DNA of 30,850 nt. Source: a virus. A program made the position numbers and the translations under genes. Under the pieces are notes generated by a model. The model was not told the origin of the DNA. It worked only from the letters and a program-made list of their open reading frames with translations, and did no database searches. This document shows, piece by piece, positions 1 through 30,850 of the stretch; positions within the stretch are counted from its first letter, which is position 1; every line of letters starts with the position of its first letter. The stretch is from positions 1 through 30,850 of the IMG/VR virus record IMGVR_UViG_3300046167_000336; one strand, 5' to 3'.

Positions 1-1604
1 CTAATGGCAATATTACTGACGGAACTGATATTGTTGTAAGTGCAGGTGATGATATAACTTTTACAGATACAAGTAAGATTTTGTTAGGTGATGATGATGA
101 TTTACAAATATATCATAATGGTACAAACGCAGTAATTGATAATGGTACAAATAATTTACTAATACAAACAGCATCACAAACTATAATAAGTTCAGATGCA
201 ACTGATAATCAATTAACATTATCGCACAGCACAGGAAACTGGTTTGCAAAAGCGACAAACAGCAATACGTTAATTATAGGTAGCGAAAGTAATGCTACAG
301 ACAATATAACATTAGATACTACAAATGGCGGAAGTGCAACCTTTGCTGGAAACGTAGGAATAGGAGGAACACCAAGTACATTTGCTAATTTTACAAATGT
401 TACAATTCAAGGCGGTTCAAGTGGTTCTAATCTTGACTTTAAAAACTCAAGTGGAACAAGGGTAAGTGCAATAGTAACAACTGCAAGTAATGAATTAATT
501 ATTGAAACTGGTACTGCACAACCTATGATATTTAAAACTAACGATACAGAAAGAATGCGTATAACATCTGGGGCAAGAATTAATATGGATGTAATGGCAG
601 GGCAAGCGTCTGAAGGTGTTATTCGTATTGGTAGATATGATGCAAATACAAGCAGATATAATGAAATACAAAATTATGTTACATCAAGTGCTGCAGGTAG
701 TTATATGAATTTAAGTGTTCATAGTGGTACTGAAAATGTAGTTACAGATGTAATGACTTTATTAGGTTCTGGAAACGTAGGAATTGGTGGTTCTCCTGAT
801 TCACCTTTACATCTTTCACAAGCAGCAGCAAACACTTTCTTTAAAATGGAAGCATATGCAAGTACACAAGGTGCTGATGCAGGAATCAATGTAGCTCGTG
901 AATTAACTTCAGGGAGCAGTTCCAATTTAAGTTTTTGGACAAACACGGGTAGTGCATTAACACAAAAATTAATAATAGACAGTTCTGGAAACGTAGGAAT
1001 TAATGATACTAATCCAAATACAGCAAATTTAAGTATAAAAGGACAGAGTACAGGCGTTAGTGCTAATTACCCTATGCTTAAGTTATTAGGGCAAAATACA
1101 AGTTCAGATGGATTACACATAACTACAACTGGAACAGGTAATAACTATTATGCTATAAAAGTGGCTACTGGTGCTGATTCAAGTGCTTTTGCTGTAACAA
1201 ACGCAGCAAACGTAGGAATCGGAGCGACTAATCCTTTTGCAAAACTTGAAGTTACAGGTAATTTATCAAATAATTGGGCAGGAAGATTTGAAAACACTAA
1301 TTCAATTGGTTATGGAATTTTAGCAAAAATAAATTCAACAGATTCAAGTGATTATATATTTCAAGCAAGAACAGGAAGTACAAATGTAATGACTATTTTA
1401 GGTGACGGCAACGTAGGAATTGGAACGATTTCGCCACAAGAAAAATTACATATTGTAAATGCTGCAAATGCAAGTGTAGATAATTTTATGCTTGAATTAC
1501 AAAATACAACAACTGTAGCTGATTCAAGGTCAGGAATATTATTTTCCACTAATAGTGGCACGGGGTCAAGTAGGGCAGGGGTGCGCAATACAAGGTTCAA
1601 ATAA
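1..1604 (+). CDS. Tail fibre protein, central shaft (5' partial at window edge)
   Basis: The frame is already open at base 3 and runs to a stop at 1602-1604, so this is the continuation of the gene starting at 29770 rather than a new gene at the internal TTG at 81. It encodes repeated beta-rich modules ending in [SG]GNVGIG, with phrases such as DDLQIYHNGTNAVI and ERMRITSG that are common in marine phage fibres carrying a C-terminal S74 chaperone. It stops abruptly after SSRAGVRNTRFK with no chaperone domain. The domain lies in the next frame (1555-2214), so a frameshift is likely at the GGGG run at 1578-1581. Joined to the 29770 part, this frame alone would make 894 residues. With a +1 shift the full protein would be about 1,097 residues. 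Role: host recognition at the tail tip. Confidence 0.8.
   Translation, partial: NGNITDGTDIVVSAGDDITFTDTSKILLGDDDDLQIYHNGTNAVIDNGTNNLLIQTASQTIISSDATDNQLTLSHSTGNWFAKATNSNTLIIGSESNATDNITLDTTNGGSATFAGNVGIGGTPSTFANFTNVTIQGGSSGSNLDFKNSSGTRVSAIVTTASNELIIETGTAQPMIFKTNDTERMRITSGARINMDVMAGQASEGVIRIGRYDANTSRYNEIQNYVTSSAAGSYMNLSVHSGTENVVTDVMTLLGSGNVGIGGSPDSPLHLSQAAANTFFKMEAYASTQGADAGINVARELTSGSSSNLSFWTNTGSALTQKLIIDSSGNVGINDTNPNTANLSIKGQSTGVSANYPMLKLLGQNTSSDGLHITTTGTGNNYYAIKVATGADSSAFAVTNAANVGIGATNPFAKLEVTGNLSNNWAGRFENTNSIGYGILAKINSTDSSDYIFQARTGSTNVMTILGDGNVGIGTISPQEKLHIVNAANASVDNFMLELQNTTTVADSRSGILFSTNSGTGSSRAGVRNTRFK
351..1420 (+). repeat. Five exact 11-nt repeats encoding NVGI in the fibre gene
   Basis: The word AACGTAGGAAT occurs at 351-361, 774-784, 990-1000, 1209-1219 and 1410-1420, always in the same reading phase. 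A degraded sixth copy lies near 1690. Spacings are 423, 216, 219 and 201 nt, all multiples of three, so the unit is a module of about 70 residues ending in GNVGIG, with one double-length interval. The sequences between copies differ, so this is a modular protein repeat with a conserved DNA core, not a recent tandem duplication. Confidence 0.8.
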
Positions 1605-7968: not shown

Positions 7969-8181
7969 ATGGTTATATTTTACTTAGATAAAGCTTTATA
8001 CATAAAGCATAGTTATATTCCAGGTTTTTCGAAAACTTATTATGATCCGCCATCTGATCCTGATATTTCAATAGAAGATATATTTTTAAATGAAGAAAGT
8101 ATATATGATTTAATGGGAGACAAACAATTACAAGAAATAGAACAATTACTTTATAATGAATATACTGAAGAAAGCAGATAA
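7969..8181 (+). CDS. Acidic 70-residue hypothetical protein
   Basis: The protein has an N-terminal strand-like segment (MVIFYLDKALYIKH), then DPPSDPDISIEDIFLN and an acidic helical end (DKQLQEIEQLLYNEYTEE). It lies four bases after the previous stop, and its last 26 nt overlap the next gene. No motif was recognised. Acidic small proteins early in phage operons are sometimes inhibitors of host functions, but nothing here shows that. Confidence 0.65.
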   Translation: MVIFYLDKALYIKHSYIPGFSKTYYDPPSDPDISIEDIFLNEESIYDLMGDKQLQEIEQLLYNEYTEESR

Positions 8182-8419
8182 AATAGTTAACGAAAGATTA
8201 GAAGAAAAAGAAAGAAATTATGGTCCTTTTTCTGAAGGAATGAAACGTGCCGCTATGATAGCTAGTGGTTGTACAGGTAAAAAAATAACTACTAAAGACA
8301 TGTACATGTGTATGATAGCTTTAAAATTATCTAGAGAATCATACAATCACAAAGAAGATAATTTATTAGATGCTGTTGCTTATATAGGTGCGTTAAATAA
8401 CTACGAAAATGAAAAATAA
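8156..8419 (+). CDS. DUF6378-like protein
   Basis: The 87-residue protein has the pattern of the DUF6378 family. KADKIVNERLEEKERNYGPF is followed by a variable stretch, then ITTKDMYMCMIALKLSRE and HKEDNLLDAVAYIGALNNY. The family is common in tailed phages near nucleotide metabolism genes, and its helical acidic pattern recalls MazG-like folds. No activity is established to my knowledge. It overlaps the gene before it by 26 nt and the next gene by 11 nt, so it belongs to the modification operon. Confidence 0.7.
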   Translation: MNILKKADKIVNERLEEKERNYGPFSEGMKRAAMIASGCTGKKITTKDMYMCMIALKLSRESYNHKEDNLLDAVAYIGALNNYENEK

Positions 8420-9320
8420 AAAAGGAATAGTAGGTGTTGTTAGTAATCCTGTTAGAAGTTTAAATAGTCATAACGGAGGTTGGACATTAGTTTTAAAAAG
8501 TATTTTAGATGCTGATATACTAACTGAAAAAGATGATTGGAATAAATACGAAGAACTAATATTGTCTGAAGGAATTAATTATAAAGAGGGAAAATTTAAT
8601 TTTTTTGGAGGAGTTCAAGATTCTTTTTATATAAGATTAAATAAGTTAAATGATTTCAAAGGGAAAGTATATTGTATTAATGAAATGATAGACTACAATG
8701 TTGTTTGTAAAAAAAGAAAAGAATTAAAAGGTTTAAGTTGTAATAAATTACCTGAAATACTATACACAAAAAAACATAATAACAAATTAATATTAGGAGA
8801 TAGTCATAGTGTTTCTGTTTATAGACCTGGTTATTCTATACATAGAATAGACGGTAAAACTTTAAATGGTTTTTTAAAAATAGGATTACATAATTTTATT
8901 AAAAAAGACACTAGTGAATTGGTTTTTTATGCAGGAAATATAGATGTTAGATTTCATATACATAGGTTTGGAGGTAGGAAAGCTGTAGTAGATTTAATTA
9001 GAGAATTATTTGTACAGTTACAGAAATTAAATTTAAATAAAATAACTTTAGTTTCTTTGTTGCCTATAGAAGATGAATCAAGAAAAATACCTGGAACTGG
9101 TTTATATAAAGATAAACCTTTTTTTGGCACTAAAGAAGAAAGAACTTATTATGTTAATGAATTTAATGCTTTACTAAAAAGAGGAGCGAATCATTATAAT
9201 TATAATTTAATAGAATGGGATTTTAATTATGAAGATGGCCTTTCTTTTGATGAAATGGAATCACGACAATCTGTTCATTTAAAGCCAAAATCTTATAAAT
9301 ACATAAAACAATTATGTTAG
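8409..9320 (+). CDS. SGNH/GDSL-hydrolase-like protein in the DNA-modification operon
   Basis: The 303-residue protein has two parts. The N-terminal ~120 residues (containing NSHNGGWTLVLK and FNFFGGVQDSFYIRL) match no family I know. From about residue 125 the features fit an SGNH hydrolase. Block I is LILGDSHSVS (Ser132 as nucleophile candidate); block III is YAGNIDVRF (Gly176, Asn177). A C-terminal RQSVHLKPKSYKYI places His290 where the catalytic His sits, although the usual DxxH Asp is replaced by Gln287. The family includes esterases and acyl transferases. It overlaps genes on both sides and precedes a DNA-transferase-like protein and a PLP enzyme. It may attach or trim an acyl or amino-acyl group during base modification; that role is inference. 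Confidence 0.6.
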   Translation: MKNKKGIVGVVSNPVRSLNSHNGGWTLVLKSILDADILTEKDDWNKYEELILSEGINYKEGKFNFFGGVQDSFYIRLNKLNDFKGKVYCINEMIDYNVVCKKRKELKGLSCNKLPEILYTKKHNNKLILGDSHSVSVYRPGYSIHRIDGKTLNGFLKIGLHNFIKKDTSELVFYAGNIDVRFHIHRFGGRKAVVDLIRELFVQLQKLNLNKITLVSLLPIEDESRKIPGTGLYKDKPFFGTKEERTYYVNEFNALLKRGANHYNYNLIEWDFNYEDGLSFDEMESRQSVHLKPKSYKYIKQLC

Positions 9321-10219
9321 ATCAATTTAAAGATTATTATAATAAAGCACATAAAATGCAACAGCTTAAATTTCAAGGGTTTAATTGGAAAGAACAAGAT
9401 GTTGATGATGATTTAGTTTGGAACATACCTATATATGATGTAGTTAATAGAAGGTTTGCAGCATTTAGTAGTTTGTTAGAAGCAATAAAAGCAAAAGAAG
9501 ATCCAAAAAATAATAGTGTTTATTTTAGAAGTAGTAGAGACAATATTAAAGATGTTGATTTCATTAAAATGTGTTATTTATTTAGATTGTGTGGTTCAGG
9601 CATTAATTATATACCTAAAGATAATTGTGGTTCTCCTTTTGGTACTCATGGCTTTGGTAATTTTTGGGTTGTAAATGAATTAAATAAAGGTTTAGTTGAC
9701 TGTAATAATTGGATTAATATCATGCCTGAAAAAAAATTTTGTGACGTAAAAGGTTATTTGTTACCAATGATAAAAGGTGGGTTATATAATTTTATACAGA
9801 ATGAAAGTAAAGATTTAATGATTAATTTAATAAATTATATTAAACAACCTAATATAAAAGGTATTAAGGATGTTGTTGACTATGGCAACGATTGGTTAAT
9901 TAACAAAGGTTATAAAAGACAAAACTTCGTATTAACTGCTTTTTCTATGGACATGGCAGAATATTATCCTAATTTAGTGAATAGAGACAGTGATGTTTAT
10001 GTTGGCTCTAATGCTAAAAAATGTTTAAAGATGATATTACCTAACAAAAAAACAAATGATGCATTACGTTATTTGTGTGATATAACAGGTGGTTATTCTA
10101 AACCTTATGACATGGAAGATGTTGCTTGTGACTTTATTAGGTATATAGAAAATTTTCAAAGCAAACATCATATAGAAAAAAACAATGGAATAAAATATTA
10201 TAATAATGTTCTTAAATAA
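9314..10219 (+). CDS. Amino-acid:DNA-transferase-like (aGPT-pyrophosphorylase-like) helical protein
   Basis: The 301-residue protein is helical. It carries YLFRLCGSGINYI (about residues 89-101), FGTHGFGNFWVV (about 109-120) and, near the C-terminus, DMEDVACDFIRYIE. The GSG-hydrophobic-aromatic, HG-x-x-N and E-x-x-C-[DE]-F-x-[KR]-Y patterns resemble the alpha-glutamyl/putrescinyl thymine pyrophosphorylase and amino-acid:DNA-transferase group. In phages such as SP10 and phiW-14, that group replaces a pyrophosphorylated hydroxymethyl group on DNA with an amine-bearing moiety. No phosphate-transferring kinase was recognised in this genome, which is unexpected. The neighbours (PLP enzyme, TS-like enzyme) support a DNA-base role. 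The match is by remembered motif and should be tested by profile search. Confidence 0.55.
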   Translation: MLDQFKDYYNKAHKMQQLKFQGFNWKEQDVDDDLVWNIPIYDVVNRRFAAFSSLLEAIKAKEDPKNNSVYFRSSRDNIKDVDFIKMCYLFRLCGSGINYIPKDNCGSPFGTHGFGNFWVVNELNKGLVDCNNWINIMPEKKFCDVKGYLLPMIKGGLYNFIQNESKDLMINLINYIKQPNIKGIKDVVDYGNDWLINKGYKRQNFVLTAFSMDMAEYYPNLVNRDSDVYVGSNAKKCLKMILPNKKTNDALRYLCDITGGYSKPYDMEDVACDFIRYIENFQSKHHIEKNNGIKYYNNVLK

Positions 10220-11108
10220 ACAGAAAGATAAAGAAAATAATGATTTAAAAAACATAAGTTTAGATTATTATTTAGAATTAACAAAGCATTTTAAATCTTC
10301 TTTTGATGATTTTATTGTAAAAAAAGTAAATGGATTTAATGTTATAGATGAATCTCTTGGTTGTGAGGTGGGTTATAAAGCTAGATCTGGAGAATTTTTT
10401 ATGAAACAGTTAGTTGGTTTAGGAGTGAAAGAAATAGTATATGTTCAGCCAAGGAGAGGTTTTGCTGGAATAAGTTTATCTTGGTTATGTAATAAGTATT
10501 CTATAGATTTAACTTTAGTTATGCCTTCTTCAAAAGAAATAAGTGATCATCAAGCTTTATGTATAGAACTAGGAGCTAAACCTTTATTTGCGAGAATAGC
10601 AGCTATGCCTAATGCAAATAGATTAGCTAGATTATATGCTGAAAAAACAAACGCTTATTTTGTGCCTTTAGGTTTAAACCATCCTTTTGTTATTGCAGGA
10701 GGAGTTAAATGTTTTTATGATTTTTTTAAGGACAAGGAGAAACCTAAAACAATGTGGTCTGTAATATCTACTGGAGTTTTGACTAGAACAATGCAGATTG
10801 CTTTACCTGATACTAATTTTAAAGCAGTTGCTGTTGCTAGAAACATACAACAAGGTGAATTAGGTGTTGCAGAATTTTATTCTTATCATAAACCTTTTAA
10901 TAGTAAATCTGATTTAGTTCCTAGTGATTTCAACTGTGAAGATTCATACGATTCTAAGGGCTGGGACTATTTAAATAAATATGGAAATAAAGATGATTGG
11001 TTTTTTTCTGTAGCGGGTAATGCTAGAAAACCTAATATTGAAAAAAAATTAGTAAATTCGTATAGAGATTGGAATGACTTAAAGGACTTTAAACAGTATG
11101 GTATTTAA
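10206..11108 (+). CDS. PLP-dependent enzyme, fold type II (deaminase/lyase-like)
   Basis: The 300-residue protein resembles fold-type-II PLP enzymes such as ACC deaminase, cysteine desulfhydrase and threonine synthase. There is a Lys-containing start of the domain (GYKARSGEFFMKQL, Lys58 and Lys67 as Schiff-base candidates). A phosphate-binding-like loop follows (QPRRGFAGIS, about 81-90), with MPSSKEISDHQALCIELGAK typical of the small domain. IAAMPNANRLARLYAE and the Gly-rich VISTG come next. In phages with hypermodified thymine, PLP enzymes remodel amino acids attached to the base, for example by decarboxylation. It overlaps the transferase-like gene by 14 nt and the TS-like gene by 11 nt. 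The exact reaction and the catalytic lysine are not certain. Confidence 0.7.
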   Translation: MFLNKQKDKENNDLKNISLDYYLELTKHFKSSFDDFIVKKVNGFNVIDESLGCEVGYKARSGEFFMKQLVGLGVKEIVYVQPRRGFAGISLSWLCNKYSIDLTLVMPSSKEISDHQALCIELGAKPLFARIAAMPNANRLARLYAEKTNAYFVPLGLNHPFVIAGGVKCFYDFFKDKEKPKTMWSVISTGVLTRTMQIALPDTNFKAVAVARNIQQGELGVAEFYSYHKPFNSKSDLVPSDFNCEDSYDSKGWDYLNKYGNKDDWFFSVAGNARKPNIEKKLVNSYRDWNDLKDFKQYGI

Positions 11109-11745
11109 CAGAGCACAGGAAGCATTTGAATTTTATTATGATTTAATATCTAGAACAGGTATTAATTTTGATAATACTAAAGCATTATTTAACATAGGTT
11201 TTAATATATTAAATCCATTGGAAAATAATATAAAAACTAAGTGGAGAAATTTTTCAAATAAATATGCTAAAAGAGAGTGGGACTGGTATTTATCAGGAAA
11301 TCCTAATGCAGAAGAAATATCTAGATATGCTCCTACCTGGAAGAATATGATGGATGAAAAAGGTAATGTTAGATCTAATTATGGTTGGCAATGGAAAAGG
11401 AATGATCAGTTAAATAAAACAATAGATATATTAAAAAGAAATAAAAATACTAGGCAAGCAGCCATATCTATTTATGATGGTAAAGAAATACAAACTTACA
11501 GTAAAGATACTCCTTGTACATATGCTATAAATTTCACTATAATAAACAATAAATTAAACATGTCGGTATTAATGAGATCTAATGATTTATGGTACGGATT
11601 TTGTAATGATCAATATTGTTTTAGTAAATTACAAGAATTAATTTGTAAAGAATTAAAAGTTAATATTGGTAGCTACTATCATTTTGTAAATAATTTACAT
11701 ATATATAATAATTTTTTAAATAAAAACAATGAAACTAAACAATGA
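11098..11745 (+). CDS. Thymidylate-synthase-fold dNMP hydroxymethylase-like enzyme
   Basis: The 215-residue protein shows the thymidylate synthase / deoxypyrimidylate hydroxymethylase core. It has SRYAPTWKNM, then SNYGWQWKRNDQL, NTRQAAISIY (Arg119), and the nucleophile motif DTPCTYAINF (Cys140). RSNDLWYGFCNDQYCF (Arg160, Asp163, Gly167) and LHIYNN (His201, Tyr203) follow. Counting from the conserved Arg, the position of E. coli TS Asn177 is occupied by Asp171. T4 dCMP hydroxymethylase also has Asp there, and it favours dCMP over dUMP. The likely reaction is addition of a hydroxymethyl group to C5 of dCMP (or dUMP) using methylene-tetrahydrofolate. It is shorter than bacterial TS. It overlaps both neighbours in the modification operon. 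Confidence 0.78.
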   Translation: MVFNRAQEAFEFYYDLISRTGINFDNTKALFNIGFNILNPLENNIKTKWRNFSNKYAKREWDWYLSGNPNAEEISRYAPTWKNMMDEKGNVRSNYGWQWKRNDQLNKTIDILKRNKNTRQAAISIYDGKEIQTYSKDTPCTYAINFTIINNKLNMSVLMRSNDLWYGFCNDQYCFSKLQELICKELKVNIGSYYHFVNNLHIYNNFLNKNNETKQ

Positions 11746-12031
11746 ATTTAAACCAATTAGAGATTGGGCAGAACAAAAAGGTATTTTAAATGAAGGTGAT
11801 TCAAGAACACAGTATGTTAAATTACAAGAAGAATCTGGTGAATTAGCAAAAGCTTTACTTAATAATGATCAAGATGAGATAATAGATGCTATAGGTGATA
11901 TGGTTGTAGTGTTAACTAACTTAGCAGAACTAAGAAACGTTAAAATAGAAGATTGTATAAACTCAGCTTATGATGTAATTAAAAATAGAACTGGTAAAAT
12001 GATAAATGGAACGTTTGTAAAAAATAATTAG
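11729..12031 (+). CDS. MazG-like nucleotide pyrophosphohydrolase
   Basis: The 100-residue all-helical protein has the MazG signature. KLQEESGELAKALLN gives the E-E-x-x-E metal site at residues 34-38, and DEIIDAIGDMVVVLTNLAE gives the second acidic helix (E-x-x-D and a following D). Such enzymes hydrolyse NTPs or dNTPs to monophosphates. Next to a hydroxymethylase-like gene it may remove unmodified dNTPs or supply monophosphate substrate, as analogous phage enzymes do; this is inference. It overlaps the TS-like gene by 17 nt and is followed two bases later by the RecE-like gene. Confidence 0.85.
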   Translation: MKLNNEFKPIRDWAEQKGILNEGDSRTQYVKLQEESGELAKALLNNDQDEIIDAIGDMVVVLTNLAELRNVKIEDCINSAYDVIKNRTGKMINGTFVKNN

Positions 12032-29706: not shown

Positions 29707-29810
29707 AAAAAACTTATAAGCCAAAGGCAGAAAATATAAAGAAATTATTAACTTATTTAAAAAGCAATAATGGCTACATTAACAAGCACGAAAATAAAAA
29801 ACACTTATGA
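29694..29810 (+). CDS. 38-residue basic peptide between connector and fibre
   Basis: A short ORF starts inside the connector gene and overlaps the fibre start by 41 nt. It encodes MGIIKKTYKPKAENIKKLLT, then YLKSNNGYINKHENKKHL. The first half looks like a genuine basic helix. The last 13 residues overlap fibre codons and may be constrained by them. It could be a coupled leader peptide or a small structural protein. It fills the only gap between connector and fibre. Confidence 0.45.
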   Translation: MGIIKKTYKPKAENIKKLLTYLKSNNGYINKHENKKHL

Positions 29811-30850
29811 TGCGTTATTAAAGTCAATAGACAATGATGCAATAGGTTCTACAGCAAAACAAATAACAGACGGTTTAGGAAATACAACGCCATTATACGT
29901 ATCAACAACTCAAGTGGGTATAGGAGTTACTCCAGAATCAGGATTAAATCTACACGTTTACGGAGATGCAAAAATAGGAAGCAATTTAACTGTAATAGGA
30001 AACCTAGTAGTTGAAGGAAGCACAACAACTGTAGGAACTGACACACTAACAGTAAAAGACCCATTAATCGTACTAGCTAACAATAACACTTCAACAGACG
30101 CAGTAGATATAGGTTTTTATGGCAAATACACACCTGCAGGTACCACACTATACTCTGGACTGTTTAGAGAAGCTTTAACAGGCAAATACAGGTTATTTAA
30201 AGGATTACAAATAGAACCAACAACTACTGTAAGTATATCAGGTACAGGATATGATAAAGCAGATTTAGTTATAGGTAACATAGAAACAAATGGAGTGGTA
30301 GAAGATTCTTCATTATTTACTTTTAGTAAAGATATTTTAATTAATAAAGCAGGGACTACTAAATTAACGATAGACAATGTAACGCAAAACAAGTCAATAG
30401 AGCTAGAATGTACATCTTTAAATAATGTGCTTAATGCTGAGGGTGATATGATATTTTCATCTGGTAGCCCTATATTTAAATATACTAGTAGCAGCTTTGA
30501 AGTTTTAAATGTTGATTCAACTTTTGGAGGAGACATAACAGTAAGCACAGGCACAGAGGGAGGTGCTATTTTTCTTGGTAGTTCTGGAAGTATATTTAGT
30601 GAAGAGGGTATTACTTTTAAAGATAGTGATACTACAATTCAAAACGTAGTTGCAGGAGGTGACATTGTATTTAAAACAAAAACTGGTGCAGGAAGTGAAA
30701 ACACACATCTTACTTTGTTTGAAAATAACACATCTAGTTTTGGCGGTCAGGTTACTATTCCTTTAACTCCGAGTGCAAATACAGATGCAGCATCAAAAGG
30801 GTATGTAGACACTCAGGTTGGAGCAAACAATGAGCTTTCTGAGGTTTTAG
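29770..30850 (+). CDS. Tail fibre / receptor-binding protein, N-terminal part (continues at base 1)
   Basis: The frame opens at ATG 29770 (MATLTSTKIKNTYDALLKS) and has no stop to the window edge, giving 360 codons plus one base. Those codons read as low-complexity, Ser/Thr/Gly/Asn-rich beta-structured sequence of phage fibres, with an early VGIG motif (about residue 57) and, near the edge, the fibre-typical stretch SANTDAASKGYVD. The last base plus bases 1-2 form GCT (Ala) and the frame then continues at base 3, giving ...NNELSEVL-A-NGNITDGTD... across the junction. I infer one gene split by linearisation of a circular genome. It follows the connector gene and a small ORF that it overlaps, which suits the last gene of the structural operon. 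The N-terminal part should attach to the tail. The fibre class is fairly sure; receptor and attachment partner are unknown. Confidence 0.85.
   Translation, partial: MATLTSTKIKNTYDALLKSIDNDAIGSTAKQITDGLGNTTPLYVSTTQVGIGVTPESGLNLHVYGDAKIGSNLTVIGNLVVEGSTTTVGTDTLTVKDPLIVLANNNTSTDAVDIGFYGKYTPAGTTLYSGLFREALTGKYRLFKGLQIEPTTTVSISGTGYDKADLVIGNIETNGVVEDSSLFTFSKDILINKAGTTKLTIDNVTQNKSIELECTSLNNVLNAEGDMIFSSGSPIFKYTSSSFEVLNVDSTFGGDITVSTGTEGGAIFLGSSGSIFSEEGITFKDSDTTIQNVVAGGDIVFKTKTGAGSENTHLTLFENNTSSFGGQVTIPLTPSANTDAASKGYVDTQVGANNELSEVL

What the first reader, a model, noticed from the sequence alone, without database searches (positions are those of the whole stretch)
8409..12031. Candidate new DNA-base hypermodification operon (SGNH-like + amino-acid:DNA-transferase-like + PLP enzyme + TS-fold hydroxymethylase + MazG)
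Five overlapping genes place a deoxypyrimidylate hydroxymethylase-like enzyme (11098), a PLP fold-type-II enzyme (10206), a helical protein with motifs of the aGPT-pyrophosphorylase / amino-acid:DNA-transferase group (9314), an SGNH-hydrolase-like protein (8409) and a MazG-like pyrophosphohydrolase (11729) in one operon. Known hypermodification routes (phiW-14, SP10, ViI, M6) use a hydroxymethylated base in DNA, a kinase that activates it, a transferase that adds an amine-bearing group, and sometimes PLP enzymes that remodel it. Here no kinase was recognised and an SGNH-like protein appears instead. The set could make a different modified base in a small flavobacterial phage, probably as defence against restriction. 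The motifs are seen; the pathway is inferred.
Basis: partly seen in the sequence, partly recalled or inferred. Interest (0 to 1): 0.85.

Follow-up and report, generated by a model that had tools for sequence, protein, structure and literature searches.

The report
Phage cassette that decorates cytosine DNA
A block of six overlapping genes, conserved in about a hundred viral contigs, appears to make cytosines that carry a hydroxymethyl handle and then attach and reshape a further group on it, probably to hide phage DNA from bacterial nucleases; the known amino-acid-type DNA decorations are built on thymine and use a kinase that these phages do not encode.

Summary
The operon is real: overlapping genes DUF6378–SGNH–helical–PLP–hydroxymethylase–MazG (8156–12031), syntenic in about 100 viral contigs. 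It is very probably a base-hypermodification cassette, but on cytosine, not thymine. Nearly every cassette hydroxymethylase has Thr147/Asp177 (E. coli ThyA numbering), as in T4 dCMP hydroxymethylase; M6-type enzymes have Asn147/Asn177. The PLP protein belongs to the phage M6 gp52 family. The 8409 protein has an SGNH-fold C-terminal domain and an N-terminal domain weakly like T4 beta-glucosyltransferase, an enzyme that acts on 5hmC. The 9314 protein matches no Pfam family; its model resembles predicted phage proteins annotated as amino-acid:DNA transferases. The 5hmU-DNA-kinase family is absent. Unexpected finding: a second cassette type, in phages up to 293 kb, keeps the SGNH gene and a HMUDK_hel-type helical protein but replaces the window's helical and PLP genes with myo-inositol-phosphate synthase, a HAD-like protein and an FkbM methyltransferase; Aeromonas phage 44RR fuses the SGNH and HMUDK_hel parts. 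SGNH plus a helical protein therefore looks like the installer, with interchangeable cargo genes. That SGNH activates 5hmC in place of the kinase, and the product's identity, are inference; LC-MS is needed.

The parts
8156..8419 (+). DUF6378 small helical protein; by inspection MazG/NTP-pyrophosphatase-like, function inferred
   Evidence: PF19905 3.7e-13; present in 19 of 20 HEL-bait loci, 65 of 78 PLP-bait loci and 36 of 60 variant-B loci
8409..9320 (+). Two-domain protein: N-terminal domain weakly like T4 beta-glucosyltransferase (about residues 1-100) plus SGNH/GDSL-fold C-terminal domain (about residues 125-300)
   Evidence: PF09198 in 6 of 39 members, best 1.9e-4; AF2 pLDDT 92, PDB hits are GDSL esterases, E about 3e-5
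8796..8807 (+). Block I 'GDSH' with candidate nucleophile Ser132 (residues 130-133)
   Evidence: 100% conserved in 153 sequences
9270..9278 (+). 'SVH' with candidate catalytic His290; no Asp three residues before it
   Evidence: His290 100% conserved in 153 sequences
9314..10219 (+). All-helical candidate transferase (called HEL here)
   Evidence: AF2 pLDDT 89; BFVD hits annotated amino acid:DNA transferase, E 2.8e-10 and 4e-4; homologous to a second cassette protein, c19, hhalign 98-99%
10206..11108 (+). PLP fold-type-II (PALP) enzyme of the phage M6 gp52 family
   Evidence: phrog_7093 8e-16, the family of M6 gp52; hhalign to the M6 gp52 family 97%, 4e-11
10377..10379 (+). Lys58, the PLP-lysine candidate, aligned with M6 gp52 Lys36
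   Evidence: invariant in the family
11098..11745 (+). TS-fold deoxycytidylate 5-hydroxymethylase candidate
   Evidence: PF00303 8e-25; best PDB match is MilA CMP 5-hydroxymethylase 1e-17; T4 dCMP hydroxymethylase 1e-13
11515..11520 (+). Catalytic Cys140 and Thr141 (= E. coli ThyA C146, H147)
   Evidence: alignments; cytosine-type signature per PMC8670742
11608..11610 (+). Asp171 (= ThyA N177), the dCMP-specificity residue
   Evidence: alignments
11729..12031 (+). MazG/PRA-PH-like nucleotide pyrophosphohydrolase (pool editing, inferred)
   Evidence: PF01503 6e-7, PF03819 8e-7, phrog_1992 1e-32

Best explanation
This is a phage cytosine-hypermodification cassette. The TS-fold enzyme makes 5-hydroxymethyl-dCMP; MazG and the DUF6378 protein edit the dNTP pool in favour of the modified nucleotide; 5hmC enters the DNA during replication. 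The SGNH protein, through its beta-glucosyltransferase-like N-terminal domain, recognises 5hmC in DNA and works together with the helical protein to install a group on the hydroxymethyl; most likely the SGNH domain activates the hydroxyl (for example by acylation) and so replaces the 5hmU-DNA kinase of M6/ViI. In this version of the cassette the group is an amino acid or amine, which the PLP enzyme then remodels (for example by decarboxylation). In sister phages the same SGNH protein, paired with an HMUDK_hel-type helical protein, appears with inositol genes instead. Shown by sequence: the gene set, its conservation, the dCMP-type residues, the family or fold of PLP, TS, MazG and SGNH, the absence of the 5hmU-kinase family, and the two interchangeable cassette types. 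Inferred: every chemical step after 5hmC formation, the order of steps, the leaving group and the identity of the product.
For: Conserved synteny over diverse phages. Dedicated TS with Thr147/Asp177 in 75 of 77 unique sequences from variant-A loci (the other two keep Asp177), 7 of 8 in variant-B loci and both T4-like contigs L195/L196, against 25/25 Asn147/Asn177 in M6-type loci; several large phages carry a canonical His147/Asn177 ThyA as a separate gene. Best PDB match is a cytidylate hydroxymethylase. Asp177 and position 147 mark TS genes from modified-cytosine contigs (PMC8670742). In L195/L196 the cassette genes lie beside a T4 gp42-type TS and, by inspection, a dCMP deaminase. PLP is in the M6 gp52 family. 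The 9314 model resembles ADDT-annotated viral proteins. The SGNH gene accompanies the HMUDK_hel-like 44C family in 58 of 60 loci found with 44C alone as bait and is fused to it in a 59th, Aeromonas phage 44RR. HEL/PLP and HMUDK_hel do not co-occur in the genomes tested.
Against: No chemistry is shown. The 9314 family is not linked to ADDT or HMUDK_hel by any sequence profile, scoring no better than unrelated controls, and no solved structure matches its model significantly although M6-type transferases are in the PDB. SGNH enzymes are usually hydrolases; this one lacks the Asp three residues before the His and has GNID in place of GxND. No hm-dCMP kinase was recognised in the small genomes, so how hm-dCTP is made is unexplained. 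The beta-glucosyltransferase link is weak (E 0.067 for the full profile). That M6 gp52-type PLP enzymes are decarboxylases is from memory; the paper was not held.
Confidence: 0.68

Rival explanations
1. Thymidine-type hypermodification as in M6/ViI: the TS homologue makes 5hmdUMP and amino acids are added to 5hmU in DNA.
For: The PLP enzyme belongs to the M6 gp52 family; the 9314 model resembles ADDT-annotated proteins.
Against: Asp177/Thr147 in essentially all cassette TS against Asn/Asn in M6-type TS; best PDB match is CMP hydroxymethylase; no PF18748 kinase, no ADDT family.
Confidence: 0.05
2. The decoration is made on the nucleotide (5hm-dCMP or 5hm-dCTP) before incorporation, not on DNA.
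For: The 5hmC carbamoyltransferase of PMC8670742 acts on 5hmdCTP; this phage has no DNA polymerase of its own among recognised genes and several small nucleotide enzymes.
Against: The beta-glucosyltransferase-like N-terminal domain and the resemblance of the helical protein to DNA-acting transferases fit polymer-level work better; [quoted passage not shown]
Confidence: 0.17
3. Same cytosine pathway, but the SGNH protein is a late cap or an esterase that finishes or trims the group, and the helical protein acts on 5hmC without prior activation.
For: SGNH folds are typically esterases or acyltransferases; the canonical triad is incomplete.
Against: The SGNH protein is present in both cassette types and fused to the HMUDK_hel-type part in 44RR, which couples it to the installation step.
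Confidence: 0.3
4. The genes serve something other than base modification, for example a diffusible metabolite or a host-takeover factor, and the hydroxymethylase is incidental.
For: No product is known; PALP and SGNH enzymes are metabolically versatile.
Against: Tight linkage to dCMP-type hydroxymethylase and MazG, the PLP family shared with an established DNA-modification phage, and the Aeromonas fusion to an HMUDK_hel-type domain.
Confidence: 0.06

Closest known systems
Thymidine hypermodification in Pseudomonas phage M6 (5-NedU) and Salmonella phage ViI
   Same: TS-fold hydroxymethylase, PALP enzyme of the same PHROG (phrog_7093), helical transferase-type protein beside the PLP gene, one block of neighbouring genes
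   Different: M6 builds on 5hmU (Asn147/Asn177), has a P-loop 5hmU-DNA kinase (gp54), Pfam ADDT (gp51), HMUDK_hel (gp55) and a radical SAM protein (gp53); the window has Asp177/Thr147, no such kinase, no Pfam ADDT or HMUDK_hel, and an SGNH protein
T4 dCMP hydroxymethylase (gp42) plus beta-glucosyltransferase (5hmC glucosylation)
   Same: dCMP-type TS-fold enzyme; the partner protein has a beta-GT-like N-terminal domain including the NFFGG motif
   Different: The sugar-donor half of beta-GT is absent; an SGNH domain takes its place, with helical and PLP enzymes added
5hmC carbamoyltransferase cassettes (MetaGPA, PMC8670742; similar genes in Bacteroides phage BF486P2)
   Same: Cytosine-type TS with pool-editing pyrophosphohydrolase; BF486P2 has the closest TS among named phages, 52% identity
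   Different: BF486P2 has a carbamoyltransferase; none was recognised among the window genes scanned
Aeromonas T4-like phages 44RR, 31, UP87 (SGNH/HMUDK_hel fusion, function unannotated)
   Same: Same two-domain SGNH protein; 44RR has a dCMP-type TS as well as ThyA
   Different: Fused to an HMUDK_hel-like domain; 44RR has no HEL or PLP gene
5-carboxymethylcytosine system CmoA/CmoX/CmoY (PMC12783734)
   Same: Amino-acid (glycine) hypermodification of cytosine in phage DNA
   Different: Uses Cx-SAM, a C5-methyltransferase homologue and an ATP-dependent ligase, not hydroxymethylcytosine

Membership tests
Deoxycytidylate 5-hydroxymethylase (T4 gp42 type) | Asp at E. coli ThyA position 177 | tested here: met
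   Asp171 of the window protein; Asp in all variant-A cassette TS
Deoxycytidylate 5-hydroxymethylase (T4 gp42 type) | Catalytic Cys and cytosine-type residue (Thr) at position 147 | tested here: met
   Cys140-Thr141 in the window protein; same Thr in T4 gp42; position highlighted in PMC8670742
Deoxycytidylate 5-hydroxymethylase (T4 gp42 type) | Hydroxymethylation of dCMP rather than methylation | not testable with these tools
   needs an enzyme assay
M6/ViI-type thymidine hypermodification | dUMP-type hydroxymethylase (Asn177) | tested here: not met
   Asp177
M6/ViI-type thymidine hypermodification | P-loop 5hmU-DNA kinase (PF18748) | tested here: not met
   absent from the window and all other cassette-bearing records searched; M6 control positive at 1.1e-19
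M6/ViI-type thymidine hypermodification | PLP enzyme of the M6 gp52 family | tested here: met
   phrog_7093 8e-16; hhalign 97%
Amino acid:DNA transferase (ADDT, PF18724) | match to the Pfam profile | tested here: not met
   no match in the window or 14 other cassette genomes; M6 control 2e-48; none of 33 members
Amino acid:DNA transferase (ADDT, PF18724) | shared fold | tested here: inconclusive
   BFVD proteins annotated ADDT match at 2.8e-10 and 4e-4; no significant PDB match
HMUDK_hel (PF18723) | match to the Pfam profile | tested here: not met
   window none; variant-B partner proteins 1e-8 to 6e-8, M6 1e-57
SGNH/GDSL hydrolase superfamily | SGNH fold with block I Ser | tested here: met
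   GDSH invariant; 62 PDB matches at E <= 0.001, those listed mostly GDSL/SGNH proteins
SGNH/GDSL hydrolase superfamily | block III GxND and block V DxxH | tested here: not met
   GNID instead of GxND; His290 invariant but no Asp at -3
T4 beta-glucosyltransferase | N-terminal domain | tested here: inconclusive
   PF09198 in 6 of 39 members, best 1.9e-4, each sub-cut-off where the score was shown; profile against T4 BGT E 0.067, collinear over residues 1-101
T4 beta-glucosyltransferase | C-terminal UDP-glucose-binding domain | tested here: not met
   PF09198 matches stop near residue 95; the rest matches SGNH-fold proteins

The most novel reading that the evidence does not exclude
A modular platform for decorating 5hmC that needs no kinase: a chimera of a beta-glucosyltransferase-like DNA-reading domain and an SGNH acyl-transfer domain activates 5-hydroxymethylcytosine in DNA, a helical transferase swaps in a nucleophile (an amino acid in the window's phages, inositol or methyl-inositol in the sister phages), and a cargo-specific enzyme finishes it. 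It would be the cytosine counterpart of thymidine hypermodification with a different activation chemistry, and inositol-bearing DNA would be a new kind of base.
Probability: 0.3. Interest if true: 0.88.

Novelty: new variant of a known kind. Interest (0 to 1): 0.74.

Why it matters
If right, a widespread group of uncultivated phages, from about 30 kb genomes to 293 kb contigs, decorates cytosine by amino-acid-type or inositol-type chemistry. It would extend the hypermodification logic known for thymine to 5hmC, propose an alternative to the DNA-base kinase, give a role to unannotated genes of long-cultured Aeromonas phages such as 44RR and 31, and provide enzymes for labelling 5hmC, an epigenetic base of animals.

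Tried and rejected
Pfam, PHROGs and NCBIfam on the 9314 protein: nothing. Profile-profile comparison of the 9314 family with ADDT, HMUDK_hel and 44C, with enlarged and merged alignments and unrelated controls: no better than controls, while it does find the c19 paralogue at 98-99%. My by-eye motif correspondence with HMUDK_hel was not reproduced by these alignments and is not used as evidence. Pfam ADDT and HMUDK_hel on the window and variant-A genomes: absent. PDB fold search of the 9314 model: nothing significant. tblastn of the helical protein (the window's and two diverse relatives, one of them L196's) and of the c19 protein against named phages: no match, so no cultured phage with this exact cassette is known here. 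The thymidine-type reading was rejected on TS residues. Phage ino1 genes in Stenotrophomonas phage Moby lie beside 7-deazaguanine genes and have no annotated SGNH gene near them, so ino1 alone does not mark the system. Key papers on thymidine hypermodification are not in the library.
Full report
WHAT IS THERE. The window is an IMG/VR viral record of 30,850 bases. Six genes on the + strand overlap end to start: DUF6378 8156-8419, SGNH 8409-9320, helical protein (HEL) 9314-10219, PLP 10206-11108, TS-fold 11098-11745, MazG 11729-12031. Recognised neighbours are ERF, NinG, a DnaB-like helicase, a DUF3799 nuclease and a DnaA-like HTH protein. A 32 kb relative (G001) aligns collinearly from 2146 to 30260, and both window ends fall inside open reading frames that look like one tail-fibre gene, so little of the genome is probably missing (inference).

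NOT CHANCE. With HEL as bait, 20 of 20 viral loci carry SGNH and PLP, 19 carry TS, 18 MazG. With PLP as bait, 69 of 78 new loci carry SGNH and HEL; in the large phages (up to 256 kb) the cassette often sits by dUTPase, B-family DNA polymerase and ribonucleotide reductase genes, often with a second helical gene, c19. HEL and c19 are homologous (hhalign 98-99%). Two contigs placed in bacterial MAGs (L195, L196) hold HEL, PLP and SGNH in another order beside a T4 gp42-like TS and what reads as a dCMP deaminase; L196 also has c19. Third-position substitutions dominate in all six genes.

THE BASE IS CYTOSINE. Aligned to E. coli ThyA, the window TS has Cys140-Thr141 (ThyA C146-H147) and Asp171 (ThyA N177). 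Of 77 unique TS sequences from variant-A loci, 75 have Thr147/Asp177 and the other two have another residue at 147 but keep Asp177. Variant-B loci give 7 Thr/Asp and one canonical His/Asn copy; T4 gp42 is Thr/Asp; all 25 M6-type TS are Asn/Asn. Large cassette phages that also have a normal ThyA (His/Asn) encode it separately. The best PDB match is MilA CMP 5-hydroxymethylase (1e-17); T4 dCMP hydroxymethylase follows among the top hits. PMC8670742 cites work that Asp177 switches substrate from dUMP to dCMP and finds that positions 177 and 147 best separate TS genes of modified-cytosine contigs from others. So 5hmC, not 5hmU, is the likely handle.

PLP ENZYME. Pfam PALP matches at 1e-7 (32.1 bits, cut-off 35); phrog_7093 at 8e-16. 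M6 gp52 belongs to phrog_7093 at 2e-159, and the profile alignment gives 97%, 4e-11. Lys58 and the STGV loop line up with M6 Lys36 and SSGTV. From memory, not from a paper read here, M6/ViI-type PLP enzymes decarboxylate amino acids already attached to DNA.

SGNH PROTEIN. The AlphaFold model (pLDDT 92) matches GDSL/SGNH esterases in the PDB (best about 3e-5). In 153 sequences GDSH (Ser132), Asp179, Arg181, His183, Glu221, Arg245 and His290 are essentially invariant, but the block III GxND is GNID and the Asp three residues before the His is missing. Residues 1-95 or so match the T4 beta-glucosyltransferase Pfam profile in 6 of 39 members (best 1.9e-4); the family profile aligns with T4 BGT residues 1-101 collinearly through the NFFGG motif, at E 0.067. 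I treat this as a likely but unproven link to an enzyme that acts on 5hmC in DNA.

HELICAL PROTEIN. No meaningful Pfam, PHROG or NCBIfam match. The model (pLDDT 89) matches BFVD proteins annotated 'Amino acid:DNA transferase domain-containing' at 2.8e-10 (TM 0.75) and 4e-4, but nothing significant in the PDB, where M6-type transferases are present. Sequence profiles do not place it in ADDT or HMUDK_hel. Its transferase role rests on structure resemblance and gene context.

THE SISTER CASSETTE. Aeromonas phage 44RR ORF233c (795 aa) is the same SGNH protein fused to a C-terminal part with weak HMUDK_hel similarity (0.0036). With only that C-terminal part (44C family) as bait, 60 viral loci came back: 58 have the SGNH gene nearby, one is the 44RR fusion, one lacks it on the stretch held. 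In many of the cassettes read, the genes between SGNH and 44C are a myo-inositol-1-phosphate synthase (PF01658, 1e-22), a small HAD-like protein (by inspection) and an FkbM methyltransferase (PF05050, 9e-13); 44C itself scores above the HMUDK_hel cut-off in L305 (5e-8). INO1, HAD-like and FkbM genes occur in at least 43, 40 and 32 loci; DUF6378 in 36; dCMP-type TS is present. HEL and PLP are absent from the variant-B genomes tested, and HMUDK_hel from the variant-A ones. The SGNH gene is thus constant while the helical partner and cargo genes change. 44RR and UP87 have a large gene next to the fusion, annotated in 44RR as matching SSF sodium:solute symporters; import of a polyol is a guess.

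NO 5hmU KINASE. PF18748 is absent from the window, from all other cassette-bearing records searched and from phages PTm1 and 44RR, with phage M6 as positive control; several records are fragments, so this is strongest for the window and its 32 kb relative. Among the early window genes scanned no kinase of any kind was recognised. How 5hm-dCMP is phosphorylated in the small phages is unexplained.

MECHANISM. Most likely order: dCMP to 5hm-dCMP (TS); pool editing (MazG, DUF6378); incorporation as 5hmC; SGNH protein and helical protein install a group on the hydroxymethyl; PLP enzyme remodels it. I favour activation of the hydroxyl by the SGNH domain because it is the constant partner of the helical proteins, is fused to one in Aeromonas phages, and stands where M6 has a kinase; a late-cap or trimming role for SGNH remains a serious rival, as does action on free 5hm-dCTP.

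NOVELTY. A new variant of a known kind (phage base hypermodification). I found no paper describing this set within the library searched, which lacks the main thymidine-hypermodification papers. No cultured phage in the phage collection has the exact cassette, but Aeromonas relatives of the SGNH/HMUDK_hel pair are cultured and give the quickest test.

Noticed in passing
L305:263-5200 and other loci among L264-L323: A sister cassette with DUF6378, SGNH, myo-inositol-1-phosphate synthase, HAD-like protein, FkbM methyltransferase and a HMUDK_hel-type protein, possibly making inositol-bearing 5hmC.
   Followed up: partly
L004:6411-10391 (Aeromonas phage 44RR); L364:3259-7264 (UP87): A large gene (SSF sodium:solute symporter family in the 44RR annotation) sits directly before the SGNH/HMUDK_hel fusion gene.
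   Followed up: no
L005 (Erythrobacter phage R6L gp1) and L006:6282-8600 (Microcystis phage Mae-JY30): Relatives of the window PLP enzyme lie within or beside proteins annotated as ParB-like and DNA methylase, perhaps another DNA-linked use of this PLP family.
   Followed up: no
L002:2647-8675 (Bacteroides phage BF486P2): Two dCMP-type TS-fold genes, a carbamoyltransferase and an AAA-domain (kinase-like) gene, which looks like a 5-carbamoyloxymethylcytosine cassette.
   Followed up: partly
L362:6207-11621 (Stenotrophomonas phage Moby): A phage inositol-phosphate synthase gene stands next to folE and 7-deazaguanine modification genes, without an annotated SGNH gene nearby.
   Followed up: no
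window 3-1604 and 29770-30849: Both contig ends fall in open reading frames that look like one repetitive tail-fibre gene; a 32 kb relative also has its end in a matching gene, suggesting a nearly complete genome.
   Followed up: partly
L085:6884-7996 and about 20 relatives: A second helical protein (c19), homologous to the 9314 family, lies between HEL and PLP in many larger phages, as if the helical protein had been duplicated.
   Followed up: partly
L196:12233-13432; L265:6528-7748; L282:5452-6630: C5-cytosine methyltransferase-like genes lie beside both cassette types in some T4-like and large phages; role in the modification unknown.
   Followed up: no
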